DNA of 64,000 nucleotides from a virus: positions 124,001-188,000 of IMG/VR virus record IMGVR_UViG_3300028676_000003; one strand, 5' to 3'. The position numbers and the translations under genes were made by a program. The notes under the pieces were generated by a model, which did no database searches, was not told where the DNA came from, and was given only the letters and a program-made list of their open reading frames with translations. Shown here piece by piece: positions 1 to 64,000 of the stretch (the first letter of the stretch is position 1; the number at the start of each line of letters is the position of its first letter).

Positions 1-2
1 GT

Positions 3-645
3 GCTTATTCACATACTGAAGGTTCAGGTACAACTGCATCAGGAAACTCAGCTCACGCTGAAGGTATGGGGTCAAGAACCCAAGGACAAGCCGCTCACGC
101 TGAAGGTACTAATACAATTGCAAACGCAAATAATGGACACTCAGAAGGTTTAAATACTATCGTTTTAGGTGAAAATGCTCACGCTGAAGGTGAAGGTACA
201 TCTGCTACAACAAGAAATGCGCATGCTCAAGGTTCAGGGACAACAGCATCAGGTAATAACTCACATGCTGAAGGTTCAGGTACTGTTGCATTCGGACCTA
301 ATTCACATGCTGAAGGTTCTAATACTCAAGCAACTGGAAGTTTTTCACATGCTGAAGGTCTTCAAACTCAAGCATCAGGAGATGCATCACATGCTGAAGG
401 TTATGGTAGTGTTGCTTCAGGTCTTTATTCACATGCTCAAAATGATACAACAATTGCTAGTGGAACATATTCACATGCAGAAGGTCATGGTGCTCAAGCT
501 ATTGGTTATACTTCACACGCTGAAGGAAGCTCAACAGCTTATGGTTATTATTCACACGCTGAAGGTAATTCTACTGCCGCTAATGGTGACTATTCACACT
601 CGCAAGGTAATGAAACAACCGCTAATGGTACTTATGGTTTCGTAG
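3..645 (+). repeat. Tandem coding repeats with core HAEG
   Basis: The DNA carries at least 13 imperfect copies of a 39-51 bp unit whose most constant part is TCACATGCTGAAGG or a close variant. The copies keep the protein motif S/A-H-A-E-G while the DNA differs at third positions (cacgctgaagg, catgctgaagg), so the repeats are old or held at protein level rather than freshly duplicated. One copy each reads HAQG, HAQN and HSQG. Confidence 0.8.
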
Positions 646-1367
646 GTGGTTTCCAATCAACAAGTGTTGGTGAATCATCTTTTGCATATGGTACTAAGGT
701 GAATGTATCGGGTGATTGGTCAGTTGGTACTGGAACTGGTTCAACAACTTCTAATGAAGGTTCATTTGTTCACGGTTCAGGTGCTACTTCTGATGGTCTT
801 TGGAGTGTTGCTTTTGGTAGAAACACACAAGTATCAGGAGATTGGTCATTTGGTGCTGGTGCAGGTGTAGTTGTATCAGGTGAGTCATCTGTTGCTTTTG
901 GATGGAATAGTATTGCTGGTGGTTATGCATCTTGTTCTATTGGTGAAAACAATAGAGCTTTAGGTTCTCGTAGTACTGCATTTGGTAGTGGTACACATGC
1001 AAATGACCAATGTTCTTTCTCTTGGGGTCAAAATACACAAGCTAACGGTGCTGGAGCAACAGCCTTTGGAGCAACAACACAAGCTAACGGTGGTGGGTCA
1101 TTTGTTGGTGGTTACTTAAGTAATGCTGACGCTAATAACTCATTCGTATTTGGTTCTGCATCAACTACTAATTCTAATGCTGACTGGTCATTCATTTTAG
1201 GTAATGGAATTACAGCAAACACACCAAATACAGTATTTGTTGAAAGACTTAGTATCAAGACAGCTGGTCCATATGCAAATGATGCGGCCGCAGATGCTGA
1301 TGTGAGTCTTGCATCAGGTGGTCTTTATACTCTAACAGGTTCAAGAGTTGTTTATAGAAAACCATAA
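3..1367 (+). CDS. Tail fibre/adhesin with HAEG beta-roll repeats (5' end outside window)
   Basis: The reading frame is open from base 3, so the gene begins upstream of the window; the first ATG at 66 lies inside a repeat (AEGMGS) and is not the true start. About 455 residues are visible. The first two thirds consist of short repeats of the type SHAEGxxTxASGxY, recurring every 13-17 residues, then degenerate repeats of the type SVAFGxNTxVSGDWS. This is the signature of the left-handed beta-roll found in heads of trimeric autotransporter adhesins (YadA/Hia) and in some phage fibres, where three chains form a stiff rod. The C-terminus (about 45 residues, ending SRVVYRKP) is non-repetitive. A role as tail fibre or decoration that contacts the host is inferred from the repeats and from the neighbouring appendage genes. 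An intramolecular chaperone or peptidase domain is not seen. Confidence 0.8.
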   Translation, partial: AYSHTEGSGTTASGNSAHAEGMGSRTQGQAAHAEGTNTIANANNGHSEGLNTIVLGENAHAEGEGTSATTRNAHAQGSGTTASGNNSHAEGSGTVAFGPNSHAEGSNTQATGSFSHAEGLQTQASGDASHAEGYGSVASGLYSHAQNDTTIASGTYSHAEGHGAQAIGYTSHAEGSSTAYGYYSHAEGNSTAANGDYSHSQGNETTANGTYGFVGGFQSTSVGESSFAYGTKVNVSGDWSVGTGTGSTTSNEGSFVHGSGATSDGLWSVAFGRNTQVSGDWSFGAGAGVVVSGESSVAFGWNSIAGGYASCSIGENNRALGSRSTAFGSGTHANDQCSFSWGQNTQANGAGATAFGATTQANGGGSFVGGYLSNADANNSFVFGSASTTNSNADWSFILGNGITANTPNTVFVERLSIKTAGPYANDAAADADVSLASGGLYTLTGSRVVYRKP

Positions 1368-1373
1368 TAATAT

Positions 1374-1616
1374 ATGCCAATATTAATAAAAAAAATAAGT
1401 GGAGAAGCCTTAAAGAATGTTAGCGATAGCATTCTTTATGTTTCTGCCATTAACGGACAAATTCAAAGAGAAGACTATATTAATTTATATGGTTTCATTG
1501 GATATACCCAAAACTTAAGCAGAGTTGAAGAGACTTCATTATTGAATAAACCTTCACCTTTTGGGTTAAAAAATGCTTATGATAATACAATAGTTACACT
1601 AGAAATAAATTATTAA
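1374..1616 (+). CDS. Small hypothetical protein in fibre operon
   Basis: This 80-residue protein starts 6 nt after the fibre stop and its stop codon overlaps the ATG of the next gene (TAATG), so it is probably translated with them. It has no membrane segment, no cysteines and no motif I recognise; hydrophobic and polar residues are mixed as in a small folded domain. Position after a repetitive fibre suggests a fibre-associated or assembly protein, but this is only inference from context. Confidence 0.65.
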   Translation: MPILIKKISGEALKNVSDSILYVSAINGQIQREDYINLYGFIGYTQNLSRVEETSLLNKPSPFGLKNAYDNTIVTLEINY

Positions 1617-6485: not shown

Positions 6486-7142
6486 ATGGAAAAAGAATCA
6501 GAATTTTTATTGGCATTAGACGTATCAACTTCAACAATTGGTATTGCTCTATTTGAAGACTTAGGTGATAAAGGGAAACTTAAATTGTTACACCACGTAT
6601 CACCTAAAGTTAAGCCTAAGCCAAATAATAAAATGGAAGAATTATTCAGAAAGGTTGAAATCTTCGAGAATGAATTCTTATCACACTATAGTGATGTTGG
6701 TATCACTAGAATCGTAATTGAGGAACCTCTTTTACAATCAAATAACGTTTATACCATCGCAACTCTTCTTCGTTTTAACGGAATGATTTCTAAATCTTGT
6801 TGGGACACCATTGGTGTGGTCCCTGAGTTCATTTCTTCATACGATGCACGTAAGTATGCCTTCCCTGAACTTATGGCCGTTAGAAAGGCTAAAAAAGATG
6901 GAACTCCTTTGCCTGAAAAAACCATAGCTAAAAATACACCAGTTCTTTTTGGTGACTATGCTTTTGATATAGATAAAAAATATGTTCTTTGGGAGAAAGT
7001 AGCTGATTTAGAGCCACAAATAACTTGGTTCTTCGATAAAAACAACAAACTTAAAAAAGAAACATTTGATACATCTGATGCGTATACTGCCGCACGTGGT
7101 TATATGAACAAGATGGGTTATTGGAAAATCGAAGATAAATAA
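6486..7142 (+). CDS. RuvC-like Holliday junction resolvase
   Basis: This 218-residue protein has the RNase H-fold pattern of RuvC-type resolvases: a first strand LLALDVSTSTIGIALFE with Asp12, a second conserved acidic pair in IVIEEPL (Glu79/Glu80), and a C-terminal helix with DTSDAYTAARGY (Asp195/Asp198). These acidic residues would bind the two metal ions that cut four-way DNA junctions. In T4 this job is done by an unrelated enzyme (endonuclease VII, gp49), so a RuvC-like enzyme would replace it for resolving replication and packaging intermediates. It lies just upstream of the primase with 38 nt between, in which the primase has its own promoter. It could alternatively process R-loops or other branched DNA. 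Confidence 0.75.
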   Translation: MEKESEFLLALDVSTSTIGIALFEDLGDKGKLKLLHHVSPKVKPKPNNKMEELFRKVEIFENEFLSHYSDVGITRIVIEEPLLQSNNVYTIATLLRFNGMISKSCWDTIGVVPEFISSYDARKYAFPELMAVRKAKKDGTPLPEKTIAKNTPVLFGDYAFDIDKKYVLWEKVADLEPQITWFFDKNNKLKKETFDTSDAYTAARGYMNKMGYWKIEDK

Positions 7143-7180: not shown

Positions 7181-8155
7181 ATGGCAATGTTATTAGTTAA
7201 TATATTAGAGAGTTTTCTAGGGGATGTTAGAAAGCATAACGAAGATACGGGACAAATCACTTTTGATTGTCCTGCGTGTTCCGCTGAGCAAAACATGCCT
7301 GATGGAGATGGTAAAGGAAACCTAGAAGTTAACTATAATCGTAGTATTTTCAAGTGTTGGGCCTGTCAAGACACCAATAACATGCATGGAGTGATAATGA
7401 AGCTCCTTAAAAAGTATGCCACCCCTAAGAATATACGTGATTACCTACTAGTTAAACCTGATGCTGATACCATTACACCCCTAGAGAAGAAGGAAGTTGT
7501 AGTTACTCTACCTGAAGGCTATAAAAAACTATCAGAATGTACTACCAAGGATTTTAAATACGGTCAAGCAATGAAATATTTGCGTGAACGTGGTATTACT
7601 GATGAAATAATCAGGTATTTTGAAATAGGATATACATACAAGGGTGATTTTTTCAATAGAATTATCATTCCATCGTATGATTCTGAAGGAAAATTGAATT
7701 ATTTCATTGCAAGATGGTTTGGAAATGAGTATACGAAGTTAAAATACATCAATCCAACTGCCGAAAAACAAGAAATAATATTCAACGAAGGTAAAATTAA
7801 CTTTGATGCAACGATTTATCTTGTTGAAGGGGTTACCGACCATATTGTTGTTCCAAATTCTATACCTCTATTAGGAAAATACATCTCAGATAAGCTTATG
7901 GACCTGTTACATGACAATGCTAATGGTAATATAGTAATTGTTCTAGATGATGATGCCTATGAGGATGCTAAGATTCTATACCACCAACTTAATTTTGGTA
8001 ACCTTAGAGATAGAATACGTATAGTAAAGATACAGAATATTGAGGGTCATGACCCGTTGGACCCGTCTAAGATATTTGAAAAGTGGGGTCCTAAAGCTAT
8101 TGTTAGTTTATTAAGAAGTGCTTTTAAACTGCCTGAGACGGATTATTACGTATAA
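7181..8155 (+). CDS. DNA primase, DnaG type (zinc ribbon plus Toprim)
   Basis: This 324-residue protein has an N-terminal zinc ribbon with Cys30, Cys33, Cys59 and Cys62 (CPAC, CWAC) and a C-terminal Toprim domain: IYLVEGVTDHIV gives the catalytic Glu near residue 216 and VIVLDDDAYEDA the metal-binding Asp cluster near 255. Between them, KYLRERGITDEIIRYFEIGY is typical of DnaG-like primases. It would make RNA primers for the lagging strand with the gp41-like helicase encoded at 46998. It is closer to bacterial DnaG than to T4 gp61 in layout and is about 300 residues shorter than DnaG because it lacks the helicase-binding domain. The last 32 nt overlap the 3' end of the convergent gene. Its codon use (more CTA, ATA, CCC) differs slightly from its neighbours. 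Confidence 0.85.
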   Translation: MAMLLVNILESFLGDVRKHNEDTGQITFDCPACSAEQNMPDGDGKGNLEVNYNRSIFKCWACQDTNNMHGVIMKLLKKYATPKNIRDYLLVKPDADTITPLEKKEVVVTLPEGYKKLSECTTKDFKYGQAMKYLRERGITDEIIRYFEIGYTYKGDFFNRIIIPSYDSEGKLNYFIARWFGNEYTKLKYINPTAEKQEIIFNEGKINFDATIYLVEGVTDHIVVPNSIPLLGKYISDKLMDLLHDNANGNIVIVLDDDAYEDAKILYHQLNFGNLRDRIRIVKIQNIEGHDPLDPSKIFEKWGPKAIVSLLRSAFKLPETDYYV

Positions 8156-9527: not shown

Positions 9528-12500
9528 ATGAGTCAAACAAAAACGAAAGTCGATAACTTGGTTATCGAAAAATTTCTTGAAGGAACTGACCCGCAAAAGT
9601 ATATAGTTGGTGTTGAAGCTGTTTATGATAAACCAATTGTAACGTTGGTAATCAATGATAGAGATACAGACACCAAGTATTTAGAAGAGCACAGGTATAA
9701 ACCATTCCTTTGGTTTAAAGAAGACATTACCACAGTCATTTACGGTGGTAGTAAAACAAAGATACGAGAAGCGGCCGCTAGGCACGGTATCAAAATGGTT
9801 AAGCTTAGAACTGCTAATGATGATGGGTTTACACCTGTACGTCTACAAAATGGTTATAAGTTCTTAGCAACATGTACTAAATCATACAATGAATTAATCA
9901 ATTTCTTTAAATTCGGTGGTGTAGACCCATTTAGTAAAGAATACCAAAAGAACTTCGTTATGTTTAGTCCTACTGAACAATTCCTTATCCAAACAGGTAA
10001 GCGTTTGTTCAAAGGTATCGACGATTATAACGATGTTCACAGGTTCCAATATGACTTGGAGACCGAGGGTTTATTTGCTGACAGTCATGCAATATTCCAA
10101 ATCGGTGTACGAGACAATAGAGGATTCGAAGGTGTTCTAGAAACTGTCGGTGCGAGAACACAAGCACTTATCGAACAAGAGCGTGAAGCTAAGGATGAAA
10201 TAACGAAACTAGCCATTAGAGCTGAGTTAGAATTAATCAAAGATACACCTCAAGAATTACGTGAGGCAGAACGTCAAAATATCAAGAAATTCTTTGAAAT
10301 TATTGACGCTGTTAAACCTGATATTATCACTGGATATAACTCAGAGGACTTTGACTGGCCTTTCTTATTTAAAAGAGCTGAGAGACTTGGTATTTCAATT
10401 ACTGAATTAGCAATTACTCTTAATCGTGCATCTAAGATTAAACGTAAAGAAGCTTCTTTGAAATTGGGTGGTGAGACCCAAAAGTATCAACAAACTCACA
10501 TGTATGGATATAGTATTATCGATATCTCACATGCTGTTCGTAGAGCCATGGCGATTAACTCGGAAATCAAAGGATGGGGATTGAAATATATCACTCAATA
10601 CTCTGAGATTGCGAAGCCAAATAGGGTTTATGTGCCTGGGGATAAGATTAATACAACTTGGAGAGATAAGAAAAACGAGTACGCTTTCAACAATGAAAAT
10701 GGTGATTGGTACAAGATTACAGCAAAGGCTCCATTAAAAGAAAAATATTCAAAAGTTAAAGGTGCTTATATAGTACAACGTTACTTATGTGATGACTTGT
10801 GGGAAACTGAACAAATTGATACTATTTTCAACCAAGCCAGTTTCCTTATTTCGAAGATTCTTCCAACATCATTCCAACGTAGTTCTACAATGGGTACAGC
10901 TGGACAATGGAAGCTTATTATGTCTGCATGGTCTTATGAGAACGGTCTTGCTATTCCTGAGTTACAACAAAAACGTGAATTTACTGGTGGTCTTTCTAGA
11001 CTTCTTGAAGTAGGTTTCGCTAAAAATGTATACAAGTTAGATTATGCCGCTTTATATCCTAAAACACAGTTAACTCACTTTATTTTCCCTGACTTAGATA
11101 TTTCAGGTGTAATGGAAGGAATGCTTACTTATGTTGTTGATAGCCGTGATAAATTTAAGTTCTTGACTGGTGTTGAAAAGAAAACATATAAAGCATTAGA
11201 AGGTAAATTGAAAGCTGAGAAAGCTAATATGACTGACGCTGAAATCGAGGAATTAACTGAGAGAATTGCGAAGCATAAAGCACTATCAAATCTTTACGAT
11301 AAAAAACAATTACCACTTAAGATTCTTGCTAACTCATGGTTCGGTTCATATGGTGCGCCATATATCTTTAATTGGGGTGATTCGGATTCTGCTGAGGAAA
11401 CAACTTGTCGTGGTCGTCAATATTTACGTCTTATGGTTAAACACTTCTATGAGAAATATAAGTTTAGACCTCTTGTAGGTGATACCGATGGTTTCAACTT
11501 TGCGGCACCTGATAACTTGGAAGAAATTACTTATCTTGCTAAAGGTACGCATTGGAAAACTGAAGATGATGCAAACAAGTTACTTGTTGGTATCGATGCT
11601 GTTCTTGCAGAGTTTAACGAAACTTATATGGAAGGTCGTATGGGTCTAGATTTAGATGATGTATGTTCTTCAACAATCAACTTTGCTAGAAAGAACTACG
11701 CCAATGATATTGGTGGTAAGATTAAGCTTGTTGGTAACTCGGTTAAATCTAAGAAAATGTCGGTTTATATAGAAGAATTCTTAGGAAAAGGTATTCGTAT
11801 GCTTTTAGATGGTGATGGTCATTCATTCATAAATTATTACTATGAGTATGTAGATAAAATCTATAATTACCAAATTCCATTGGTTAAGATTGCATCTAAA
11901 GCTAGAGTTAAAACAACAGCTACTGAATACGCTAAGAAAGCAACTCAGAAAAATAAAGCTGGGAATCCAATGCCAAAGCAAGCTCACATGGAGTTAGCAT
12001 TAAAAGATGGACTTGGAATTAACTTAGGTGATACACTTTATTATGTGAATACTGGTCTTATGAAGTCTCACGGAGATTTAAAAACAGAAACAAACAAGGC
12101 TACTGGTTTAAAAACAGTAACTCTTAACTGTAAATTAATCAACCCTGATACTGTAGAAAAAGATTTTGAGCTTATAAAAGAATTGGAGATTCTTAAAAAA
12201 GGTTTACTTGTACTTGAAGAAGCTGAGTCCGAAGCTAAAAAAGATATTGAAGATAGAATTCAAGAAATTGAAAACTCTCTTGTAACTGATGAGTATAATG
12301 TTGCTCGTTACTTGGATAATTTCAACAAAAAGGTTAAACCTCTTTTGGTTTGTTTCAACGAAGAAGTTCGTGGTAAGGTTTTATTAGATATCGTTAAGGT
12401 TAAAAATAAAGAAACCAAAAAAACAACTGACACACTAAAACAAAGAGTTATTTTTTCTCCTTATGAGTGTGAACTAATTTCAGGTATTCCTTTTAAAGAA

Positions 12501-13307
12501 GGTGACCAAGATTCATATGAAGACCTTATGCGTATGGAAGATAAAGAAATTAAGTTTTGGGATAAGGTTGATAAGGTTCCAAATAACATGGAAGAACACG
12601 TTTGGGCCGAGCTTAGAATTGATTATCATGAAAGAATGGTAATTGCTAAGATTGAAGGTGTTGAACGAGAAAAAGAAGTTATGGATGATATCATCAAACA
12701 CTTAGAAGTTAGTGACTTAGAAGGTGCAATGAGAGGTGAATTACCACTAGATGTATTTGTCATGGCTGATATGGCTGACGATGATTCAGGTGCGATTGTT
12801 TCTAGAAAATTTGGAGAAGTACTATGTTATTTCGATGAATTATTTAAATACGAATCTGATGCTATTAGACGTAATGAATTTTACCATCTTAATGGAAATC
12901 TAAATGATGCTATCGACAGATACGAACAATGGTTAGATTACAACGCAGAAAACATTGTAATGACTGGTTCAACAGTTGAAACAAGCGGACAAATGGAATT
13001 ATTCTCAGATTCTGATATTGATTCCGTAATCAAGAGAGTTAAGGTAAAAAGCAAGACAGCTACTAAGAAATCAATAGCTATGCTTAATGCTGAGAAAGCT
13101 GAACCTAAAAAGAAAGCTAGTGAAGATGAAGATGATGAAGAAGTTGTTTTTATTCTTGACGCTAACGGACAATTGGTTAGAAAAGATGAAATATTACAAT
13201 TGGATGACGAATTCGATGATACCTTTGGAGATATGCCTGAAGGATATGTTGTTTATGAAGCACCAATTACTCCAAAAGAACCTGAAAAGGACGAGTGGGG
13301 ATTTTAA
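9528..13307 (+). CDS. DNA polymerase, family B, with long C-terminal extension
   Basis: At 1259 residues this replicative polymerase is about 360 residues longer than T4 gp43. The 3'-5' exonuclease is visible as FQYDLETEGL (Exo I, near 175) and TGYNSEDFDWPFLF (Exo II, near 270). Polymerase motif A is KLDYAALYP (Asp505), motif B KILANSWFGSYG (near 600), and motif C GDTDGFNF (Asp652 and Asp654), with Gly in place of the usual Ser after DTD. The region after about 1000 is acidic and helical and has no counterpart in T4. Near residue 1154 it reads GQMELFS, a match to the bacterial sliding-clamp box QxxLF; the extreme C-terminus is EKDEWGF. It would copy the genome together with the primase, the gp41-like helicase and the SSB. 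Two early promoters and a late-type box precede it and a strong bidirectional terminator follows. Confidence 0.92.
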   Translation: MSQTKTKVDNLVIEKFLEGTDPQKYIVGVEAVYDKPIVTLVINDRDTDTKYLEEHRYKPFLWFKEDITTVIYGGSKTKIREAAARHGIKMVKLRTANDDGFTPVRLQNGYKFLATCTKSYNELINFFKFGGVDPFSKEYQKNFVMFSPTEQFLIQTGKRLFKGIDDYNDVHRFQYDLETEGLFADSHAIFQIGVRDNRGFEGVLETVGARTQALIEQEREAKDEITKLAIRAELELIKDTPQELREAERQNIKKFFEIIDAVKPDIITGYNSEDFDWPFLFKRAERLGISITELAITLNRASKIKRKEASLKLGGETQKYQQTHMYGYSIIDISHAVRRAMAINSEIKGWGLKYITQYSEIAKPNRVYVPGDKINTTWRDKKNEYAFNNENGDWYKITAKAPLKEKYSKVKGAYIVQRYLCDDLWETEQIDTIFNQASFLISKILPTSFQRSSTMGTAGQWKLIMSAWSYENGLAIPELQQKREFTGGLSRLLEVGFAKNVYKLDYAALYPKTQLTHFIFPDLDISGVMEGMLTYVVDSRDKFKFLTGVEKKTYKALEGKLKAEKANMTDAEIEELTERIAKHKALSNLYDKKQLPLKILANSWFGSYGAPYIFNWGDSDSAEETTCRGRQYLRLMVKHFYEKYKFRPLVGDTDGFNFAAPDNLEEITYLAKGTHWKTEDDANKLLVGIDAVLAEFNETYMEGRMGLDLDDVCSSTINFARKNYANDIGGKIKLVGNSVKSKKMSVYIEEFLGKGIRMLLDGDGHSFINYYYEYVDKIYNYQIPLVKIASKARVKTTATEYAKKATQKNKAGNPMPKQAHMELALKDGLGINLGDTLYYVNTGLMKSHGDLKTETNKATGLKTVTLNCKLINPDTVEKDFELIKELEILKKGLLVLEEAESEAKKDIEDRIQEIENSLVTDEYNVARYLDNFNKKVKPLLVCFNEEVRGKVLLDIVKVKNKETKKTTDTLKQRVIFSPYECELISGIPFKEGDQDSYEDLMRMEDKEIKFWDKVDKVPNNMEEHVWAELRIDYHERMVIAKIEGVEREKEVMDDIIKHLEVSDLEGAMRGELPLDVFVMADMADDDSGAIVSRKFGEVLCYFDELFKYESDAIRRNEFYHLNGNLNDAIDRYEQWLDYNAENIVMTGSTVETSGQMELFSDSDIDSVIKRVKVKSKTATKKSIAMLNAEKAEPKKKASEDEDDEEVVFILDANGQLVRKDEILQLDDEFDDTFGDMPEGYVVYEAPITPKEPEKDEWGF

Positions 13308-13340: not shown

Positions 13341-14486
13341 TTAGTATACATAGAACCCTAGAGGTCTAAATTGTAATTGTCTGTTTAAGAATTCTGCTTC
13401 TTGTGCTCCACGCTCCAATTGAGCTGTACTTGAAAGCCTAAGAAGTCTTGCATCAAGTCTTTCTAAAACTGCTCTTCTTTCATCGTTTCCTTCTGAAATA
13501 AGTGTTTCATAATCCATGATTCTTTCAGCTTCAGGCGGTCCAACAACACCACCAAACTTTCCACGAGTTCTACCAAGTGCTCTCTTAGCTTCAGCAATAA
13601 ATAATTGTCTGATAAGAGTCTTTGTAGGTGGGTTAAATGATGAGAAATCTAATTCTGATAAAGGAACTTGATTTGGTAATTGGATAATATCAGGATTATC
13701 TTTCTTACACTTGTCAGCATCTTCATCTGTTAATTTTGAAGTATCGTAATAGTGATACCAAACTTGACACCCAGTCATATTGATTGAGTTAGGTACTCCA
13801 CCTAATCCAGTACCAAACGATAACTTAGACCCAGGAACACTCAATAAATGAAGTAATTTCGTTCCATTAGGACCTGCTGTAATCTTGTGAACAAGCTCAC
13901 TTCTAACCATTCTATTCTTAAGGTTCATATCTGCCGCAGTAAGAAGTACATCGAACGCTGGTGTAATGTAGTAACCAGCATTTTGACCACCACCTTGAGC
14001 AACACCTTGTCCAGTTTGGGCAAATCCACCACCGAAACCACCATCAAGTCCACCGTAGCTACCAAATAAGGCTGGCGTAATTGTTGGAGGTGTAATCCAA
14101 AGAACTTCGTTAATTTCACGTCCTGCTGGGATTGTGTAGACTTGTCTACCTGCTTCGATTTCAACGAAGTCTTTCTTTAATTCATAAGGACCATTAGCTT
14201 GTAGACCAACTCCTTTAGAATAAGCATAAGTATATTGTGTAATGAAGTCAAAGCCTCTTACACTTAATGCAAATGCCATATCGGTTGTGTCAATACTTGA
14301 ACCTAACAATGATTGCCATTGGTGTTCAACAAGCCATTCTTGAACGTATTGAGCATAGTCTTCAATAGCTATTTCTAATAGCGTACAAAGTTGCTCATCT
14401 TCCAATTCAATCTGACGGATTGGTGCTCCGACAGAGTGTCTAAATTGACGAAATATTTTATCTCTTTCTGTTGTGCTTACTGCCAT
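13341..14486 (-). CDS. Neck protein, T4 gp13-like
   Basis: This 381-residue protein opens with FRQFRHSVGAPIRQIELEDE followed by LEIAIEDYAQYVQEW; T4 gp13 opens with the same pattern (RRLGAPIINVEL, then a helix ending LYGEY). The C-terminus, KFGGVVGPPEAERIMDYETL followed by a charged helix, also parallels the end of gp13. A Gly-rich stretch (GGLDGGFGGGFAQTGQGVAQ, near 145-165) corresponds to the Gly-rich part of gp13. In T4, gp13 forms the ring that closes the filled head and receives the tail. It is somewhat longer than T4 gp13 (309). It is transcribed opposite to gp14-like and gp15-like genes about 2.2 kb away, which is unusual. A late-type box precedes it. Confidence 0.72.
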   Translation of the reverse strand: MAVSTTERDKIFRQFRHSVGAPIRQIELEDEQLCTLLEIAIEDYAQYVQEWLVEHQWQSLLGSSIDTTDMAFALSVRGFDFITQYTYAYSKGVGLQANGPYELKKDFVEIEAGRQVYTIPAGREINEVLWITPPTITPALFGSYGGLDGGFGGGFAQTGQGVAQGGGQNAGYYITPAFDVLLTAADMNLKNRMVRSELVHKITAGPNGTKLLHLLSVPGSKLSFGTGLGGVPNSINMTGCQVWYHYYDTSKLTDEDADKCKKDNPDIIQLPNQVPLSELDFSSFNPPTKTLIRQLFIAEAKRALGRTRGKFGGVVGPPEAERIMDYETLISEGNDERRAVLERLDARLLRLSSTAQLERGAQEAEFLNRQLQFRPLGFYVY

Positions 14487-14501
14487 GTTTGTTGTTTTAT
14501 T

Positions 14502-14509
14502 ATAAATAT
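14502..14509 (-). promoter_or_regulatory. Late-type promoter box ATATTTAT (reverse strand)
   Basis: Reverse-strand TATATTTATAATAAAAC lies 15 nt before the gp13-like ATG; nearly identical to the box before the sheath and gp14-like genes. Confidence 0.55.
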
Positions 14510-14523
14510 AATAAAACTTGTAA

Positions 14524-14778
14524 TTAAGCTAAAAACTTCTTTGTTAATTCCACAGCCTCATCTATCGAGTGAAACGATACATTAGGGATAAATAATTGCT
14601 TACCAATCTTTACAACTGGCACTTCGTTAGAATTGCTTGCTACAACAACCTTACCATATTCTTCAGCATTTTCAGCCAAGTTAACGTTTATATCATTATA
14701 TTCGATACCTTCAGCTGTTAGCTTTTCTTTTAATTCCTTACAAAAAGGACACTCAGGGAATGTATAAATTATTACCAT
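14524..14778 (-). CDS. Glutaredoxin
   Basis: An 84-residue protein with the dithiol active site C10-P-F-C13 after the first strand, the cis-proline motif EVPVV near residue 54 and a C-terminal helix: a complete glutaredoxin, the same size as T4 NrdC. It would reduce the phage ribonucleotide reductase (NrdA/NrdB at 48.4-51.7 kb), whose large subunit ends in a CxxC tail. It starts inside the stop codon of the SNF2 helicase gene (TAATG on the reverse strand), so the two are translationally coupled. Confidence 0.88.
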   Translation of the reverse strand: MVIIYTFPECPFCKELKEKLTAEGIEYNDINVNLAENAEEYGKVVVASNSNEVPVVKIGKQLFIPNVSFHSIDEAVELTKKFLA

Positions 14779-20375: not shown

Positions 20376-20525
20376 TTATTCTCCATATAAATCCTTCTTT
20401 TGAACACATTTTTCTTTGATAAGTTTCTCAACAAAAGCAAACATTTTAAGTCCATTTTCCTCACAGTACTTTTTAAGTATCTCATGTGTATTAGGTGTGA
20501 TTTTAAGGTTTTTATCTCGTTTCAT
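20376..20525 (-). CDS. Small ribbon-helix-helix-like DNA-binding protein
   Basis: A 49-residue reverse-strand gene in the gap between LamG and sheath genes. The protein starts MKRDKNLKITPNTHEILKKY and continues with NGLKMFAFVEKLIKE: a basic beta strand, a helix (THEILKKYCEENG) and a second helix (KMFAFVEKLIKEK), the layout of ribbon-helix-helix regulators of phages and small replicons. The forward strand has a longer but unconvincing frame here. Upstream of the ATG is an inverted repeat AGTATG-N8-CATACT plus a direct repeat (20541-20572), a candidate operator for self-regulation. Stop codon is TAA at 20376-20378. Assignment is from pattern only. Confidence 0.65.
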   Translation of the reverse strand: MKRDKNLKITPNTHEILKKYCEENGLKMFAFVEKLIKEKCVQKKDLYGE

Positions 20526-20540
20526 AAGGTCTTTTACAAT

Positions 20541-20627: not shown

Positions 20628-20677
20628 AATAAAGAAAACTACAAAGTAAATAATAACATAAAACAAAAAAAGAAAAT

Positions 20678-26665: not shown

Positions 26666-28144
26666 ATGAATAATAAAAAACTTAAGATAACTGAAGCACA
26701 ATACAATAGACTACTACAGTTTATTGTTGAAACTCCTTTTGACACAATGGTTAAACAAAGTATCGATATAGGTGATGTTGTTTCTATTAATTGGAAAGGT
26801 AGTAAGAATAATTTCAAGGTAATTGATAATTCAGGTGGGCAAATCATTATGGATAACATCGATAAAGGTTCAACCAACATCAACAATAGATACTTCATGA
26901 GCTTTACATCGTTGAATGGTGATGACCTAGAGATGAGAAAGGTAAACAAGGTTAAAGAACCTGAAAAACTTAACGATATCAAGTCATGGTCACCAGTAAC
27001 TGTTAAAGATATTTCAAACATACAAATCTTCAGAGACGGTGAATTAATTGATACGGTTGACCCAGTTTCTCCTACTGCTGAAAAACAACAAAAAAATGGT
27101 CCAAAACCTGATACAAACACAGATAATAACCCAAGTCCTGACTTCATGAATGAGGTTAATAACGACTTGGCTATTATTCTTGAACAATTGGAAAAAGGAA
27201 AAGGAATCAATTTTATATTTAATTCAGGGTTTATTAATTTCTGTTGCTTAGATAGAGTTGATTCTACATTTATCTTAGAAATTAATGAAGAACAAAATAC
27301 AATCATCGATAGTCTTAATAAATGGGACACCTTCATTTTGGATATCAAGGGTAATCCTCAAACAGATAACCTATATCTTAAAAACAAAGACATTGTTTCA
27401 ACTAATGATGGAGTAACTTATAACCTTAAATTCAAGGTTTCAGCTGGAAATACACACAAAGAGACTGTTATAAAAGCAATCAAAGGTGTTAGTGTTTTGA
27501 GCTCTTGTGATACAACTGAAGAAGATGAAGATGAGAAACCTGAAGTAAATGGCCCTGAAGAACAGAAAGCGGATGCTGAAAAGGCACTACAAATGATTCT
27601 TAAGGATAAAGATTTACAAGATGCGTTTTATAAACAACCTGGATTTTGGGAGATGTTTAAAGCTGAACTTTCAGGTGAAAAAGCTGTTGGTACTGGTATA
27701 ATTACCGTATTAGACGTTATGCGTAAAGTAACTGAATCTAGACTTGTTAAAAAGGTAGGTAAAGGGTTTAATGTTGGTAAAAAAGCCAAGTTTATTCCTA
27801 TTGAAAACGTTAACGTTAAGTATCGTGATGATAAAGATATAATCCATAATTATGACCTTCCAATGGTTGAAGATATGATTACGGTTAGAAGACACCTTAT
27901 CGATGATGTTAGTCAAGTTTTACAAAAAAGAGTTGAGGGTGGAAATGGACTAATTCTAAGAATCCTAGTTAAAGACCAAACAGACGAACCAAATATCAAG
28001 AATTGTGATGTTCAGATTGGTATTAAAAATAAAAGCGATAAATTCGTTGAGAAGGGACAAACATCAGATGTTAACATAAAATTCTTAAATTCAGAAGGTT
28101 ATGAAGCACAAGTTCAACAACCACAAACACAAAATACTAACTAA
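26666..28144 (+). CDS. Virion-associated protein of unknown function
   Basis: This 492-residue protein precedes the tape measure gene and overlaps it by one base (TAATG), so the two are coupled. Its N-terminus (KKLKITEAQYNRLLQF) shares the short LKITxxQY motif with the protein at 23580. Residues 30-70 look like a small beta barrel (VVSINWKGSKNNFKVIDNSG), followed by a linker rich in Pro, Asp and Asn and by an acidic stretch (DTTEEDEDEKPEVNGPEEQK) near residue 290. The C-terminal 170 residues are mixed alpha/beta. No catalytic motif is seen. A role in baseplate hub or tape measure assembly is inferred from position only. Confidence 0.6.
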   Translation: MNNKKLKITEAQYNRLLQFIVETPFDTMVKQSIDIGDVVSINWKGSKNNFKVIDNSGGQIIMDNIDKGSTNINNRYFMSFTSLNGDDLEMRKVNKVKEPEKLNDIKSWSPVTVKDISNIQIFRDGELIDTVDPVSPTAEKQQKNGPKPDTNTDNNPSPDFMNEVNNDLAIILEQLEKGKGINFIFNSGFINFCCLDRVDSTFILEINEEQNTIIDSLNKWDTFILDIKGNPQTDNLYLKNKDIVSTNDGVTYNLKFKVSAGNTHKETVIKAIKGVSVLSSCDTTEEDEDEKPEVNGPEEQKADAEKALQMILKDKDLQDAFYKQPGFWEMFKAELSGEKAVGTGIITVLDVMRKVTESRLVKKVGKGFNVGKKAKFIPIENVNVKYRDDKDIIHNYDLPMVEDMITVRRHLIDDVSQVLQKRVEGGNGLILRILVKDQTDEPNIKNCDVQIGIKNKSDKFVEKGQTSDVNIKFLNSEGYEAQVQQPQTQNTN

Positions 28145-30633
28145 TGGCAGATACATCAAATATGAGTCAAGACGAGTTAAATGCGCATAACAGATTAGTC
28201 GCAGAGGCTCTTAAACTCGCAAAACAAGAAGCTAGATATAGAAAAGAAGTTAGCACCAGTCTTGCTGATTATTTAGCTGGTGTTGAGAAGGCAAATAAGA
28301 TGAAAAAAACTTATAATGCCAACTTAAAAATTCAATCTAAATTTGAGAAAGAATTAGAAAAAGCACAGCAAGATAATGATGCTCAAGCTATTCTTAATGC
28401 TCAAGTTAAGCTAGACCTTATAAAGAAACAAAATAAAGAACTTAAGAAACAACAAGAAGCTCTAGAAGACGCTTTGGCAACTGTTAATAAGACTTCTATG
28501 GTTACTGCCAAGTTAGGTGCTGAAGCTTTAAAAGGTATCGCAAAGCTTGCAACAAACATCCCAGGTCTTATCACCAAGGGTTACGGTCAAATCAAGAGTG
28601 CTGGTTTATTCGATATGGATAAAGCCATTAAGCAATCAGGTTTAAGTATGGGTCTTTTATCTAAACAAACTAGTGATTATAGAGCTAATATTACTGCGGC
28701 CGCTAAAAGAACAACTACCTTTGGTATTGGAATTGAAGAACTTGCTCAAATGCAAGCTAGTTATTCTGAAGAATTAGGTAGAGCTGTTGTTTTAACTGAA
28801 CAAGAAAGCGTTGCTATGGCTAAGATTGCCGCTGATGCTCAATTGAGTACCGAAGCAATGGGTCAAATGACTGCTGAATTAGATAGACAAGGTGTTTCTG
28901 CTGAAAGAACTGCTGACTATATTCACAAGGTTATGGAAGACACCCATAAAATGGGTCTTAATTCATCTAAGGTTATTAAGAATATCAATGCTAATTTCAA
29001 GATGCTTAATAGATATAACTTCAAAAATGGAGTTGATGGACTAGCTAAAATGGCCCAAACAGTATCTAAATTAGGTGTTTCTATGGAATTTGCCGCTGGT
29101 TTTGCAGATAAGTTATGGGATGTTGAAGGAGCTGTTGATATGTCTGCACAATTACAAGTATTAGGTGGTGAATGGTCTAAGTTAGCGGACCCATTCAAGC
29201 TTATGTATCAAGCTCGTAATGATATTGAAGGATTGACTGAAGAATTAGGTAAAGCCGCATCGGCTTCTGCTCACTTGAATAAAAAAGGTGAAATAGAAAT
29301 TGCCGCTGTTGAAATGCATAAATTAAAAATCATTGCTCAACAAACTGGTGTTGCATATGATGAGTTAGCTCAAGCTGGTAAAAATGCATTCAAGTTGAAT
29401 AAGATTAAAGGTCAAGTTCAATTCCAAATGTCTGATGAAGAAAAAGAATTCCTTACAAATCAAGCTCACTTAGATAAAGACGGAAAAGCCTATATCGTAG
29501 TTAAAGGTGATAAGAAATTCCTTGGACAATTAGGAGCTAATGCTCAAAGTATTGTTAAGGCCCAAATGGAAGAACAAAAAGCTATGGGTGAAAGAGCTAA
29601 GGATGCTCAAACATTTGATGAGGCGTTGAATAATACAATCAACGGTATGAAGGTTTATTTGCTTCCAATCATTACAGCTATAAACGAAAAATTACTTCCT
29701 AAATTGAAAGATTTTGGTGATAGATTCGAAAACGAAAAATGGGGTGATAAAATAGAGAAATTTGCTGGTATTGTTGGTGACTTGGTTACTACCATCGGTG
29801 GATTTATTATTGATAACCCAATCAAAACTGGTCTTATTTATCTTACAACTAAATTAGGTGGTTTCCTTATGGATAAAGCTACTTGGTTTAGTAATGGTCT
29901 TATACTTGCACAAGGATTTAACGCTGGGTCTGCTGGTGGTGGAGCCGCAAGTGCTGTAGCTGGTGGTGTCGGTAAATTTGCTAAGTTAGGTAAGTTTGCT
30001 AAGATTGGTGGTGGTGTAATTGCCGCTGGTGCTAGTGGATATGATGAATGGACAACCAATAAAGAAAATGGAGTTGAAGCTGGTGAAAACGCTGGCCGTA
30101 CTGCTATTAGAGCAGGGGGTGCTGGTTTAGGAGCATGGGGTGGTGCGGCCGCAGGTGCCGCATTGGGTTCTGTTGTTCCAGTTATCGGTACAGTTGTTGG
30201 TGGGATTATTGGTGGTATCTTAGGTGGACTTGCTGGTGATAAACTAGGTGATATGGGTGGTGATGCCGCTTATGGTGTTCACGATGGTAAATTCCCTGCA
30301 ATTGGTAAGAACTTAGGTAGCGATTTTTCTCAAGGTAGAGGAATTATTCAAGGTGGAAAAATTACACCTATTGATAATAAAGATGACCTTATGGCAATGA
30401 AACGTGGTGGTCCAGTCGATAATGCGTTGAGAGATGGTGGTGGAAGTGTGAACACTACTAGAGTTGATTTTGGTTCTATTACAATCAATGGTGAAATCTT
30501 GATTAAATCTCCTGGAAGTCCAGGTATGTCTGAAGACCTTATGAAGGACCCTTCATTTAGACGTGATATCACAAGAACAATCCAAGTTGAATTAGAGAAA
30601 AATAAAATTGGTGGAAAAAATAAAGGTCAATAA
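28144..30633 (+). CDS. Tape measure protein
   Basis: This 829-residue protein begins with a long charged coiled-coil region (about residues 15-120), continues with Ala-rich helices, and contains a hydrophobic Gly/Ala-rich segment in the C-terminal third (about 600-720), including GGAAAGAALGSVVPVIGTVV. This is the layout of tape measure proteins, which set tail length, occupy the tube and are released into the host envelope. Order gp26-like, gp51-like, unknown, tape measure mirrors the T4 order 26-51-27-28-29. T4 gp29 has 590 residues. The following gene is separated by a 281-nt A+T-rich gap. Confidence 0.75.
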   Translation: MADTSNMSQDELNAHNRLVAEALKLAKQEARYRKEVSTSLADYLAGVEKANKMKKTYNANLKIQSKFEKELEKAQQDNDAQAILNAQVKLDLIKKQNKELKKQQEALEDALATVNKTSMVTAKLGAEALKGIAKLATNIPGLITKGYGQIKSAGLFDMDKAIKQSGLSMGLLSKQTSDYRANITAAAKRTTTFGIGIEELAQMQASYSEELGRAVVLTEQESVAMAKIAADAQLSTEAMGQMTAELDRQGVSAERTADYIHKVMEDTHKMGLNSSKVIKNINANFKMLNRYNFKNGVDGLAKMAQTVSKLGVSMEFAAGFADKLWDVEGAVDMSAQLQVLGGEWSKLADPFKLMYQARNDIEGLTEELGKAASASAHLNKKGEIEIAAVEMHKLKIIAQQTGVAYDELAQAGKNAFKLNKIKGQVQFQMSDEEKEFLTNQAHLDKDGKAYIVVKGDKKFLGQLGANAQSIVKAQMEEQKAMGERAKDAQTFDEALNNTINGMKVYLLPIITAINEKLLPKLKDFGDRFENEKWGDKIEKFAGIVGDLVTTIGGFIIDNPIKTGLIYLTTKLGGFLMDKATWFSNGLILAQGFNAGSAGGGAASAVAGGVGKFAKLGKFAKIGGGVIAAGASGYDEWTTNKENGVEAGENAGRTAIRAGGAGLGAWGGAAAGAALGSVVPVIGTVVGGIIGGILGGLAGDKLGDMGGDAAYGVHDGKFPAIGKNLGSDFSQGRGIIQGGKITPIDNKDDLMAMKRGGPVDNALRDGGGSVNTTRVDFGSITINGEILIKSPGSPGMSEDLMKDPSFRRDITRTIQVELEKNKIGGKNKGQ

Positions 30634-46997: not shown

Positions 46998-48419
46998 ATG
47001 GCAAAAATTGATAAGAATAGTTTGGGTTACTTAGGTTATGAATACCAAGTACGATTATTAGCACAAATTCTAACAGATAGAAAATTCGCTAATTCCATTC
47101 TAGATATCGTTGACCCTAATTATTTCGAAGACCAGTACTTAAGAGTTATTGCCGCAACTATCAAAGATGCGAAACGTGTAGACGATATTGTACCTGATGT
47201 AGGTAGTTTAGAATTTAGATTATTAAAAGATGTGAAAGATGACATACAAAGAAAGTATGTCATCTCACAACTTCGTAAAGTCCAAGAAGCCAATCTAAAC
47301 GACACATTAGAGGTTCAAGATATCGCTATGAAGTTCTGTAAACAACAAGAGTTGAAGAAATCAATAGCTGAAATTACCAAAATCATCAACAAAGGTGATA
47401 TCGAAAATTATGACCAATGTGAAGCAATCCTTAGAAAGGCGTTGGAACACGGTGATAACAAAGATGATGGTATGGACGTATTGGATAACATCGCTGATGT
47501 TTTGGTGGAAGATTTTAGAAAACCAATCCGTACTGGAATTGAAGGATTAGATGAAATTATGGACGGTGGATTGTCCAAAGGTGAATTAGCTGTTATCCTA
47601 GCACCATTCGGTGTTGGTAAAACAACAATGATTACCAAATTCGCAAACACGGCCATGTTAGATGGTCACAACGTTTTACAAATATTCTTTGAAGATAATC
47701 CAAAGGTTATCCAAAGAAAACACTTATCATGTTGGTCAGGTTATGATTTAAATAGTCTTTCGCTTCACAGTGAAGAAATTTTGGCTATGGTCGAAGGAAT
47801 GGCTAATGATGGTAAAAAAGGTAAGTTAAGGCTTAAAAAGTTTTCAAGTGATGGAACAACGATTCCAGTTATTAGACAATACATTAGAAAATTAATCGCA
47901 AGTGGATTTAGACCTGATTTAATTTTATTGGATTACATTGATTGTGTTGAACCGTCAAGAAAATTCGATGATGTTAACGCAGGAGAAGGAAGTGTTATGC
48001 GTCAATTCGAAGCAATGCTTGCGGAATTGGACATGGCAGGGTGGACAGCTATTCAAGGTAATAGAAGTTCGATTAAAGCAGAGGTAGTTGAGGCTGACCA
48101 AATGGGTGGTTCTATTAAGAAAGCACAAATTGCTCACTTCGTATTATCTATTGCAAAAACACTTGAACAAAAAGAGGATGATACCGCTACAATGGCGATT
48201 CTTAAGTCTCGTTTTGGTAAATCAGGTGAGGTATTCGAAAACATTCGATTTGATAACGCAAGAATTCAAATTGATATGGGTCAAAGCAATGGTGCTAGAA
48301 CTCGTACAGAATACAAGCAAGATAAAGAGGTTACAGACCAAGTTAAGATAAATGCAGTATTGGCGGCCGCTGAGAATCGCAAAAAATTACTTAACGGAGT
48401 TACTGTAGTGCCTCAATAA
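46998..48419 (+). CDS. Replicative DNA helicase, gp41/DnaB-like
   Basis: This 473-residue protein (T4 gp41: 475) has an N-terminal DnaB-like helical domain and a RecA-like ATPase domain: APFGVGKTT (Walker A, Gly205), [37 protein letters not shown] (Walker B), [20 protein letters not shown] and [20 protein letters not shown] (arginine finger region). It is the hexameric 5'-3' helicase of the fork, working with the primase encoded at 7181. Ala-Ala-Ala near residue 457 is GCG GCC GCT, a NotI site. The NrdB gene follows after 20 nt. Confidence 0.88.
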
Positions 48420-61816: not shown

Positions 61817-61886
61817 CAAGTGCTTACTTTTAGCAATCTTGTATTAAATTTAGATTTAATAATAAATAAAAAAATAAACAAATAAT

Positions 61887-62810
61887 ATGGCAACAGGAAC
61901 ATATGGAATAGTTAGACCAGCGGATATAAACCCTGAAGATGTAGAAATTTTCTACCATTATACTCCATCTAGAGATAATGTAGGGAACTCTACACTAATT
62001 AAACTAGATTCAGCGAGCGTTCTATCTAAGGTAGATAACCCTAACAAAACACAGTCAAATGTTACTGGTTTTGAGGTTTTCGGTGGAATGTATACACTAA
62101 AATTACCAGCGGCACAATTCGGAGCCAAAGGATTTTATTCGATTATGATTAAACCAGTCGAAATTAGAACAACTATCGTAGATGTTGGTGTTTTATCAGC
62201 ATTTCCTGATATTAAAGGACTAGTATTCGATTTATCGACAATTCCAAACACATTCCTTAGTAAGTTTGAGAATAATGGTCTTGTTGGGTATAGAATTGAG
62301 TATTTAAACACGAATACTGGTGGAAGTGATGCTAAATTGAACAATTTCTTTAGAGTTATTACATCAAACAACAGAGCTGAACCAGTTAACCAAAATCTTA
62401 CGAATTCTAATCAAAAAGCAATACGTTACAGATTCAACGACAATTCAACTCTTACATTTTGTACACTAACACCAGCTTCAGCATCAAATGTTAAACCAAA
62501 TGCGTTGCCATTCATTGGACAACCTAATCAACAAGTGATTATTACAAATACATTATTCAATCCATTTATGCTTGAAGTAGAAATGGTTGAACACGATATT
62601 GAAACTCTTGCATATGCATTGTTAGGAAACCAAAGCAAGTCTCTTGAAGATGGTATTTATACAATTTACAATTTCAGCAACGATATCTACAAACAATATA
62701 ACTTGTATGAAATAAAAGACCAATTTACTGGTAAACCATTGTTCGAGGTTAGAGAAGAAAGAACGGCTATAGATTTTAGCAAAACATTTAATAATGTAAC
62801 AACAATTTAA
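61887..62810 (+). CDS. Virion structural protein of unknown function
   Basis: This 307-residue protein starts MATGTYGIVRPADINPEDVE and has beta-rich segments (GGMYTLKLPAAQFGAKGFYS) and a C-terminal helix-strand (LFEVREERTAIDFSKTFNNV). The first 160 nt show the deviating codon style, the remainder the usual one. It is followed after 4 nt by the last gene of the window. Its regular alternation of strands suggests a beta sandwich; role inferred as structural from context. Confidence 0.55.
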   Translation: MATGTYGIVRPADINPEDVEIFYHYTPSRDNVGNSTLIKLDSASVLSKVDNPNKTQSNVTGFEVFGGMYTLKLPAAQFGAKGFYSIMIKPVEIRTTIVDVGVLSAFPDIKGLVFDLSTIPNTFLSKFENNGLVGYRIEYLNTNTGGSDAKLNNFFRVITSNNRAEPVNQNLTNSNQKAIRYRFNDNSTLTFCTLTPASASNVKPNALPFIGQPNQQVIITNTLFNPFMLEVEMVEHDIETLAYALLGNQSKSLEDGIYTIYNFSNDIYKQYNLYEIKDQFTGKPLFEVREERTAIDFSKTFNNVTTI

Positions 62811-62814
62811 TAAA

Positions 62815-64000
62815 ATGAGTGATAAAAAAATAAAAGTAGCGGGGTATGCAAAGAAGGTTGTATATGACGGTAACATAGAATACAGAAATTTCAGTCCTGA
62901 CCTAGTTGGTGTACAATTAGCTAGTAATGGTGGAACCCCTTTGTTTACAATGGGGAATTTTTCTATTACAACCAATCTTGACCCTAAAACCAATAAGTCT
63001 TTTATTACCAATAGTTTTTCAAATTTTACGTCTCTTGATGACTTACAGTTAACACTTGACCAAACCAAGGCTCTTTTAACAAATAATGCTGGTGTAATTC
63101 TTAACTTGGATAAAACCAATCTTAAATACTACTCATTATTTGGTTCACTTACTGAGTTTGTTAGAGTTTCATTGGAAAATGTTATTACTACTTGGCCCGC
63201 TTCATTGTATATGTATTCAGTGAATACTAATGCGGCAGGTACAACAATTACAAATAATACATTCGATAATTATACTTATGATAGTATTTCAGATACTTCT
63301 AGCTTTAGAGTTAATACAAATTCAATCATAAACAGCTTTGATATCAATTACCTTTTAAACGGAACTATCCAAGATACTTTCAATGCATCAAATGATATAA
63401 GAAACTTAACAGTAAACTTTTATTCATATGCTGTATTATTTGAAGGTGTGGAATTTCCAGTAATTGGATATACTGGTTCAACTGATACCGTAAACGATTT
63501 TATCTATTTTGATATCAAAGGAAACCCGTTTTCAGGACAACCAAACAATATAACTTATCACGTAAAGCCAAATAAGACGATTGAAGACACGTTCTTTAAT
63601 ACGTTGGATGATTTTACCTCTTATCTATTAAATCGTCTTATAACACCTGTTTATACGGCTACATTCAGTTATCCAATCAAATCTGAAGATGGATTGATTC
63701 TTTATGTAGATAAATCAGTAACTTGGCCTGTAAGTGATGGTTATAACATTGATTTTGATTCAGGTGAGTATTTGTCGTATGCAACAGAATTATTTGAAAT
63801 TGCAACAAATAATGACTTGTATACAAGTAACCTTATGAATAGATTTCTTGTATCGGAATCTATTACATCATTTGATACACAACCTGTATTCCTTGCCGAT
63901 GAGCATATGGATTCTTCAGGTCAAAAAATGAACAAGACTCTTAATCTTTATGGTCAAGAATTTGATGATATTAATAAGTTTATTACTGGTATTTCTTTTG
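62815..64000 (+). CDS. Large structural protein (3' end outside window)
   Basis: The frame is open from the ATG at 62815, 4 nt after the previous stop, to the right edge (395 codons visible). The protein starts MSDKKIKVAGYAKKVVYDGN then IEYRNFSPDLVGVQLASNGG and continues as beta-rich sequence with many Thr, Asn and Ser. No family is recognised. Together with the preceding genes it forms one operon of baseplate or fibre type proteins. Confidence 0.6.
   Translation, partial: MSDKKIKVAGYAKKVVYDGNIEYRNFSPDLVGVQLASNGGTPLFTMGNFSITTNLDPKTNKSFITNSFSNFTSLDDLQLTLDQTKALLTNNAGVILNLDKTNLKYYSLFGSLTEFVRVSLENVITTWPASLYMYSVNTNAAGTTITNNTFDNYTYDSISDTSSFRVNTNSIINSFDINYLLNGTIQDTFNASNDIRNLTVNFYSYAVLFEGVEFPVIGYTGSTDTVNDFIYFDIKGNPFSGQPNNITYHVKPNKTIEDTFFNTLDDFTSYLLNRLITPVYTATFSYPIKSEDGLILYVDKSVTWPVSDGYNIDFDSGEYLSYATELFEIATNNDLYTSNLMNRFLVSESITSFDTQPVFLADEHMDSSGQKMNKTLNLYGQEFDDINKFITGISF

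What the first reader, a model, noticed from the sequence alone, without database searches (positions are those of the whole stretch)
1..64000. GATC appears to be completely absent
Reading every line, including joins between blocks, I found no GATC, while composition predicts roughly 150-200 in 64 kb of this base content. Codons show the avoidance: Asp before a codon starting with C is GAC (GAC CCT for Asp-Pro, GAC CAA for Asp-Gln, GAC CTT) although Asp is otherwise mostly GAT; Ile after a codon ending in G is ATT (AAG ATT, GAG ATT), while AAA ATC and GAA ATC are common. GATATC and GAATC are frequent, so the avoidance is specific. It suggests long selection by a host enzyme that cuts GATC (Sau3AI/DpnII/MboI-type), or Dam-linked effects, and it spans late and early genes alike.
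Basis: seen in the sequence. Interest (0 to 1): 0.8.

Follow-up and report, generated by a model that had tools for sequence, protein, structure and literature searches.

The report
Huge phage purged of restriction sites
A 368,549-base bacterial virus contains not one GATC, CCGG or CGCG and almost none of a dozen other short words that bacterial restriction enzymes cut; its relatives share much of this, so the word list looks like a record of the defences their hosts have used, a known kind of escape at unusual scale.

Summary
GATC is absent from the window (0 against 194 expected) and from the whole 368,549-base phage record (0 against about 1,140). The claim that the avoidance is specific is wrong. 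CCGG (0/197) and CGCG (0/121) are also absent, and about a dozen further words are nearly absent, many of them known restriction sites. Of 39 records of one phage clade, 36 (about 3.97 Mb) lack GATCWWWW, and GATC and CCGG are absent from all 12 genomes read at length. On a DNA-polymerase tree, GATC elimination needs two changes (one gain, one loss) and CCGG one. GCGC needs ten, no fewer than shuffled labels. No methyltransferase of three Pfam families was found in 39 records, apart from one C5 enzyme. No known GATC endonuclease was found in the phages. Bacteroidota, the host phylum inferred from translation and promoter signals, do carry Sau3AI, DpnII and other Dam-paired nucleases. The unrelated phages Twort and crAss001 also lack GATC in the 50 kb read. 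Best explanation: long selection by host type II restriction, countered by losing sites rather than methylating them. This is a known strategy at extreme scale. Host and enzymes remain unidentified; a self-encoded nuclease is not excluded.

The parts
1..64000 (.). Stretch free of GATC, CCGG and CGCG (part of a 368,549-base record free of all three)
   Evidence: 0 observed against 194, 29 and 18 expected; whole record 0 against 1143, 197 and 121
9528..13307 (+). Family B-like DNA polymerase, 1259 aa, used as the marker to find and order 59 clade relatives
   Evidence: PHROG 262 DNA polymerase 1e-61; relatives and trees
6486..7142 (+). RuvC-like resolvase, one of the few recognisable nucleases in the window; not a restriction enzyme
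   Evidence: PHROG 159 2.5e-7
7181..8155 (+). DNA primase (phage replication module)
   Evidence: PHROG 47 3.9e-36
46998..48419 (+). DnaB-like replicative helicase (phage replication module)
   Evidence: PHROG 19 3.7e-55
28144..30633 (+). Tape-measure-like protein, showing that the record is a tailed phage
   Evidence: PHROG 167 7.7e-18

Best explanation
The phage lineage has been selected for a long time by type II restriction-modification systems of its hosts, probably Bacteroidota, and has escaped by losing the recognition sites one by one, mostly through synonymous changes, until none was left, instead of carrying protective methyltransferases. Sites whose enzymes are met almost always (GATC, CCGG, largely CGCG, CGNCG and PstI) are fixed as eliminated across the clade. 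Sites whose enzymes are met by only some lineages (GCGC, KCAGG-like, CCTCC, NheI, and in this phage CCAGA, GCWGC, GTATCC, MscI, ApaLI) come and go. Shown: the absence, its size, its distribution over the clade, the lack of known methyltransferases and GATC endonucleases in the phages. Inferred: that restriction by hosts is the selecting force, which enzymes, and which hosts.
For: Zero GATC, CCGG and CGCG in 368,549 bases; the other depleted words include GCWGC, GTATCC (BciVI), CTGCAG (PstI), GCTAGC (NheI), TGGCCA (MscI), GACGTC (AatII) and GTGCAC (ApaLI), and also CCAGA and CCTCC, for which I know no enzyme. Most non-palindromic words are depleted similarly on both strands (CCAGA 12/10, CCTCC 10/13, GTATCC 1/1, GACATC 9/8; GCAGC 17/7), so selection acts on double-stranded DNA. 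36 of 39 clade records, 3,965,511 bases, contain no GATCWWWW, where the reversed control is frequent. Two tiers on the tree: GATC 2 Fitch changes and CCGG 1, against GCGC 10 (shuffled mean 9.8). Outgroups and the basal L073 hold GATC (27/62, 31/53, 30/48), and one nested lineage regained it (L051 24/59). No D12 or N6/N4 methyltransferase in 39 records and one C5 enzyme. Bacteroidota encode Dam-family methyltransferases next to DpnII, DpnI and DUF6996/6997 proteins, as well as Sau3AI. Precedents: phage K lost GATC against Sau3A (PMC6532042); GATC is low in all 46 phages whose hosts encode such enzymes (PMC6286503); Twort 0/114 and crAss001 0/148 in 50 kb each.
Against: The host is unknown, so no cognate enzyme was matched. 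Recognisable GATC endonucleases are uncommon in one-genome-per-species Bacteroidota (about 15 of 396 by known or Dam-paired families), which sits uneasily with near-universal retention over a tree of about 13.6 substitutions per site, although strain-level accessory systems and unknown endonuclease families would be missed. The very stable inheritance of the GATC and CCGG traits is also what a phage-encoded factor would give.
Confidence: 0.8

Rival explanations
1. Self-imposed: the phage encodes its own endonuclease(s) cutting GATC (and CCGG) to destroy host DNA, without a methyltransferase, so its own genome must lack the site.
For: GATC and CCGG avoidance is inherited like a phage trait: one origin, absolute zero, one loss. 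No protective methyltransferase. Many conserved phage proteins have no known family.
Against: No DpnII, MutH/Sau3AI or DUF6997 (where no control genome rang) in the clade records searched. No restriction endonuclease family among the PADLOC hits of 196 proteins of this phage; only PtuB-like HNH and homing-endonuclease models. Self-cutting cannot explain a dozen further eliminated words, including labile ones such as GCGC.
Confidence: 0.08
2. Dam-linked or mismatch-repair effects: methylation or nicking at GATC (MutH/SeqA-like) in the host selects against the site.
For: Dam-type D12 methyltransferases occur in 151 of 396 Bacteroidota genomes.
Against: MutH-family hits are few (6 of 396), and the one tested is a Sau3AI restriction enzyme. 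It gives no reason for CCGG, CGCG, CCAGA, GCWGC or GTATCC being lost at the same time.
Confidence: 0.03
3. Mutational or compositional bias, codon usage, or an assembly artefact removes the words.
For: The genome is A+T-rich, which lowers expectations for CCGG and CGCG.
Against: Codon-preserving shuffles still give 695, 124 and 88 for GATC, CCGG and CGCG. GATATC and GATTC are common. Coding and non-coding parts are equally empty. Many independent assemblies from different samples agree, while three records in the same collection do contain GATC.
Confidence: 0.01
4. Selection by modification-dependent or non-restriction host defences, or a phage-internal signal such as packaging or replication, that happens to target these words.
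For: A DpnI-family gene sits beside a Dam-type methyltransferase in one Bacteroidota genome.
Against: Modification-dependent enzymes need methylated phage DNA and show only weak avoidance (PMC6286503). A replication or packaging signal would be kept, not purged.
Confidence: 0.04

Closest known systems
GATC elimination in Staphylococcus phage K / Twort (Herelleviridae) against Sau3A
   Same: Tailed staphylococcal phages with complete loss of GATC; Twort first 50 kb: GATC 0/114, GCAGC 0/16; phage K 140 kb (PMC6532042)
   Different: Here the genome is about 2.5 times larger, three 4-base palindromes and about a dozen longer words are lost, host and enzyme are unknown, and the trait is followed over about 45 polymerase lineages
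Bacteroides phage crAss001 (Crassvirales)
   Same: Bacteroidota phage with GATC 0/148 and several other words gone (CTAG 2/170, GGCC 0/25, CCAGG 3/46, PstI 0/16) in 50 kb
   Different: Crassvirales, about 103 kb; a different set of words: CTAG and GGCC are not avoided here, CCGG and CGCG are
Restriction-site avoidance catalogued by Rusinov et al. 2018 (PMC6286503)
   Same: Meets their definition of site elimination (ratio below 0.1, expectation above 15) for orthodox type II palindromes
   Different: They report elimination in 3.9% (7.5% in another count) of phage-site pairs; here many sites are eliminated together, and the fingerprint is compared over a phylogeny without knowing the host
Freshwater Bacteroidetes bS21 phages (Chen et al. 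2022, PMC9723584)
   Same: Similar size (293-331 kb) and GC 31-34%; predicted Bacteroidetes hosts
   Different: bS21 was not found in this record or its relatives; 62 tRNA genes here against 5-25

Membership tests
Restriction-site elimination by a phage (sensu Rusinov 2018) | Observed/expected below 0.1 with expectation above 15 | tested here: met
   GATC 0/1143, CCGG 0/197, CGCG 0/121, CCAGA 22/272, GTATCC 2/91; codon-shuffle control
Restriction-site elimination by a phage (sensu Rusinov 2018) | Words are recognition sites of known restriction enzymes, mainly palindromic type II | tested here: met
   GATC, CCGG, CGCG, PstI, NheI, MscI, AatII, ApaLI, GCWGC, BciVI (enzyme names from own knowledge). 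CCAGA, CCTCC and GACATC are not matched to a known enzyme by me
Restriction-site elimination by a phage (sensu Rusinov 2018) | Depletion on both strands of double-stranded DNA | tested here: met
   CCAGA 12/10, CCTCC 10/13, GTATCC 1/1, GACATC 9/8; GCAGC 17/7 is less even
Restriction-site elimination by a phage (sensu Rusinov 2018) | Host encodes the cognate restriction enzymes | not testable with these tools
   Host not identified. At phylum level Sau3AI, DpnII and Dam-paired nucleases exist in Bacteroidota
Protection by phage-encoded methyltransferase | A DNA methyltransferase gene in the phage | tested here: not met
   PF02086 and PF01555 0 of 39 clade records; PF00145 only in G013; no DPPY/PCQ motif methyltransferase gene in this record
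Self-restriction by a phage-encoded endonuclease | A GATC endonuclease encoded by the phage | tested here: inconclusive
   Known families absent, but unknown nuclease families cannot be excluded
Freshwater bS21 phages (Chen 2022) | Reverse-strand bS21 gene among the structural genes | tested here: not met
   phmmer with E. coli and Bacteroidota-like S21 found none; a conserved 59-aa reverse-strand ORF matched no Pfam family
Nucleus-forming jumbo phages (Chimalliviridae) | Nuclear shell protein chimallin / PhuN | not tested
   T4-like large terminase and family B-like polymerase seen; chimallin not searched

The most novel reading that the evidence does not exclude
The two-tier pattern is real and causal. 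The fixed tier (GATC, CCGG) is enforced by something inherited with the phage, such as a phage-encoded, methyltransferase-free nuclease that cuts host DNA at GATC/CCGG, while the labile tier (GCGC, KCAGG, CCTCC, 6-mers) records successive hosts.
Probability: 0.08. Interest if true: 0.85.

Novelty: new member of a known kind. Interest (0 to 1): 0.5.

Why it matters
It shows how complete this escape route can become: over a thousand expected sites purged from one large genome, and the purge kept through a deep clade with hardly any protective methyltransferase. Because the set of missing words differs between relatives, it is a readable fingerprint of host restriction. It could help predict hosts of uncultured phages, reveal unknown enzyme specificities (CCAGA, KCAGG, CGNCG), and let gain and loss of defence pressure be placed on phage trees.

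Tried and rejected
Looked for phage-encoded methyltransferases by motif and by three Pfam families: none in this record. Tested the idea that lineages which regained a site did so by acquiring a methyltransferase: no convincing DPPY-type gene in the small fragments G016 and G033, and none of the three families in the CGCG-containing G021 and G006. Scanned 196 proteins of this phage against Pfam and PADLOC and ten selected, mostly conserved proteins against Pfam for nucleases: only HNH/PtuB-like and homing-endonuclease hits; the pooled Pfam output shows only 25 families per call. A conserved PD-ExK-like pattern scan was too unspecific. The bipartite (type I-like) motif scan was dominated by codon periodicity and was not used. 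The search for the polymerase in cellular genomes gave only two distant hits, a Prochlorococcus single-cell contig and a Saprospirales MAG contig, which do not fix the host. Assignment to the bS21 phages was tried and failed. Structure prediction was not used because no single candidate nuclease justified it.
Full report
OBSERVATION. GATC is absent from the 64,000-base window against 194 expected from its own trinucleotides. The window is 124001-188000 of a 368,549-base virus record, which I fetched and read whole. GATC is absent there too, against 1,112-1,143 expected. Shuffling synonymous codons over 246,634 coding bases gives a mean of 695 and never fewer than 645 in 40 shuffles. The codon mechanism is absolute: Asp before a C is always GAC (448 to 0) although GAT is otherwise preferred 4,480 to 1,369; Ile after G is never ATC (0 of 1,018); no AGA, CGA or GGA codon is followed by TC (0 of 4,316).

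NOT ONLY GATC. CCGG (0/197) and CGCG (0/121) are also absent, and further words are nearly gone: CCAGA 22/272, GCAGC 24/225, CCTCC 23/152, CGCCG 1/55, GTATCC 2/91, GACATC 17/100, GCTAGC 0/29, TGGCCA 0/22, CTGCAG 2/21, GACGTC 0/16, GTGCAC 0/14. The codon-shuffle null agrees for CCGG (124), CGCG (88), CCAGA (337), CCTCC (220), GCWGC (152), GTATCC (73), AGCGCT (21), CCTNAGG (24) and CGSCG (37), with 0-17 observed. Most non-palindromic words are depleted similarly on both strands, which points to double-stranded DNA as the target. Many words are recognition sites of known enzymes; I do not know an enzyme for CCAGA, CCTCC or GACATC.

WHAT CARRIES IT. The record is a tailed phage: family B-like polymerase, primase, DnaB-like helicase, ribonucleotide reductase, tape measure and a T4-like large terminase. 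It has 62 predicted tRNA genes, A-rich leaders without Shine-Dalgarno, and TTG-N17-23-TAnnTTTG promoter-like sites biased to the mainly coding strand, which fits a Bacteroidota host (inference). No isolated phage is close: the best polymerase matches are Salinibacter phages at about 23% identity.

RELATIVES. The polymerase found 59 loci in public viral contigs; one (L020) is essentially the same phage from another sample. In loci of 5-25 kb, GATC and CCGG are zero nearly everywhere. Over 39 full records, 36 (3,965,511 bases) hold no GATCWWWW while the reversed control is abundant; the exceptions are G016/G020 (one lineage) and G033. I read 12 large genomes at length (2,243,211 bases): all are free of GATC and CCGG. 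They also show lineage-specific lists: GCGC is gone in G003, G011, G012 and G022; CCTGA and CCTGC (KCAGG) in G003, G011 and nearly in G034; CCTCC in G003; CTTAAG in G012. CCAGA, GCWGC and GTATCC are depleted only in this phage.

HISTORY. A polymerase tree rooted on two distant sequences that contain GATC and CCGG (L179, L180) puts CCGG elimination before the split of L073 and GATC elimination just after it. GATC then stays at zero in all other lineages except nested L051/L057, where it has returned to about 40% of expectation. Parsimony gives 2 changes for GATC, 1 for CCGG, 4 for CGCG and 10 for GCGC, the last no fewer than shuffled labels. So there is a fixed tier and a labile tier.

PROTECTION GENES. 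No D12 or N6/N4 methyltransferase was found in 39 records, and one C5 methyltransferase, in G013. No DpnII or MutH/Sau3AI endonuclease was found in the clade records searched, nor DUF6997 (though no control genome rang for that family). PADLOC scans of 196 proteins of this phage gave no restriction system, only HNH/PtuB-like and homing-endonuclease hits. Avoidance seems to replace methylation here.

HOST SIDE. In 396 Bacteroidota genomes, 151 pass the D12 methyltransferase cut-off, 2 have full-length DpnII-family enzymes with about 9 more partial, weak matches over the cut-off, 6 have MutH/Sau3AI-family hits (the one tested is a Sau3AI equivalog at 5e-166), and 11 have DUF6997, at least seven of them within about a kilobase of a Dam-type methyltransferase. 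One Dam-type methyltransferase is followed by a DpnI-family gene. The tools of such restriction therefore exist in the phylum, but known GATC endonucleases are not common per species.

MECHANISM. I conclude that host type II restriction selected for complete removal of sites (confidence 0.8). Removing the last sites gives full immunity, which explains zero rather than few. Sites met by nearly all hosts become fixed as absent; others follow the host. What is shown: absence, statistics, clade distribution, tree pattern, lack of known protective genes. What is inferred: the enzymes, the hosts and the selecting force. The main rival, a phage-encoded nuclease without methyltransferase, would also give the vertical pattern of GATC and CCGG, but cannot explain the long labile list and found no support among known families.

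KNOWN OR NEW. Site elimination is established: phage K lost GATC against Sau3A (PMC6532042); Rusinov et al. found elimination in 3.9% (7.5% in another count) of phage-site pairs and GATC low in all 46 phages whose hosts encode such enzymes (PMC6286503); a recent review lists site removal as an escape strategy (PMC12707154). My controls agree: Twort GATC 0/114, crAss001 GATC 0/148 with six other words gone or nearly so. The case is therefore a new member of a known kind. Its distinction is scale, the number of sites at once, and a phylogeny-wide two-tier pattern, for which I found no earlier description in the literature searched.

LIMITS. Genes are mechanical ORFs. Expectations for 6-base words are small, so individual 6-mers with fewer than about 15 expected are weaker. 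Small loci cannot score GCGC or CGCG well. Several inner tree nodes have low support, though the splits placing L073 (0.997) and L051/L057 (0.998) are good. The habitat of the clade was not checked sample by sample.

Noticed in passing
L059, L061, L068, L073: about 350-aa insertion at DNA polymerase residues 652-653 (window 9528-13307 lacks it): Intein-like insertion in the polymerase active-site motif GD|TDG, starting with Ser, with LAGLIDADG-like blocks (FFLGDGS, SDGYGD), ending HN before TDG in two of the four; present in scattered lineages and GATC-free in GATC-free phages.
   Followed up: partly
L198 2369-3157, L206 2389-3147; places listed: DUF6996/DUF6997 proteins lie beside Dam-type methyltransferases in at least seven Bacteroidota genomes: a candidate uncharacterised restriction endonuclease family, possibly for GATC.
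   Followed up: partly
L199 1468-3202: A Dam-family methyltransferase followed directly by a DpnI-family gene, an odd pairing since DpnI cuts methylated GATC.
   Followed up: no
G012 (L100-L109): CAGG is 47 against 440 expected, and every remaining copy lies in CCAGG/CCTGG, while relatives G003 and G011 avoid only TCAGG and GCAGG: perhaps protection of CCWGG by a second, overlapping methyltransferase.
   Followed up: no
Whole record (L001-L019): 62 predicted tRNA genes plus tRNA synthetase, IF3, RF-1 and SmpB domains, Clp protease/ATPase, PARP, NADAR, macro, Sir2 and ADP-ribosylglycohydrolase domains: an unusually large translation and NAD/ADP-ribose toolkit.
   Followed up: no
Record 20001-40000 (L002): A region of about 14 kb with very few ORFs above 90 aa.
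   Followed up: no
window 24043-24531: 162-aa protein, probably a tail-tube protein, 97.5% identical to that of G021 while most shared proteins are 50-80% identical.
   Followed up: no
Whole record: CGGCCG is over-represented about tenfold (24 against 2.2 in codon shuffles) and GCSGC fourfold, next to the depleted GCWGC.
   Followed up: no
L149 about 13,500-15,300 (G013 73973-74785): The only methyltransferase found in the clade, a C5 enzyme whose best-scoring solved structures are DNMT3A; no site clearly released in that genome.
   Followed up: partly
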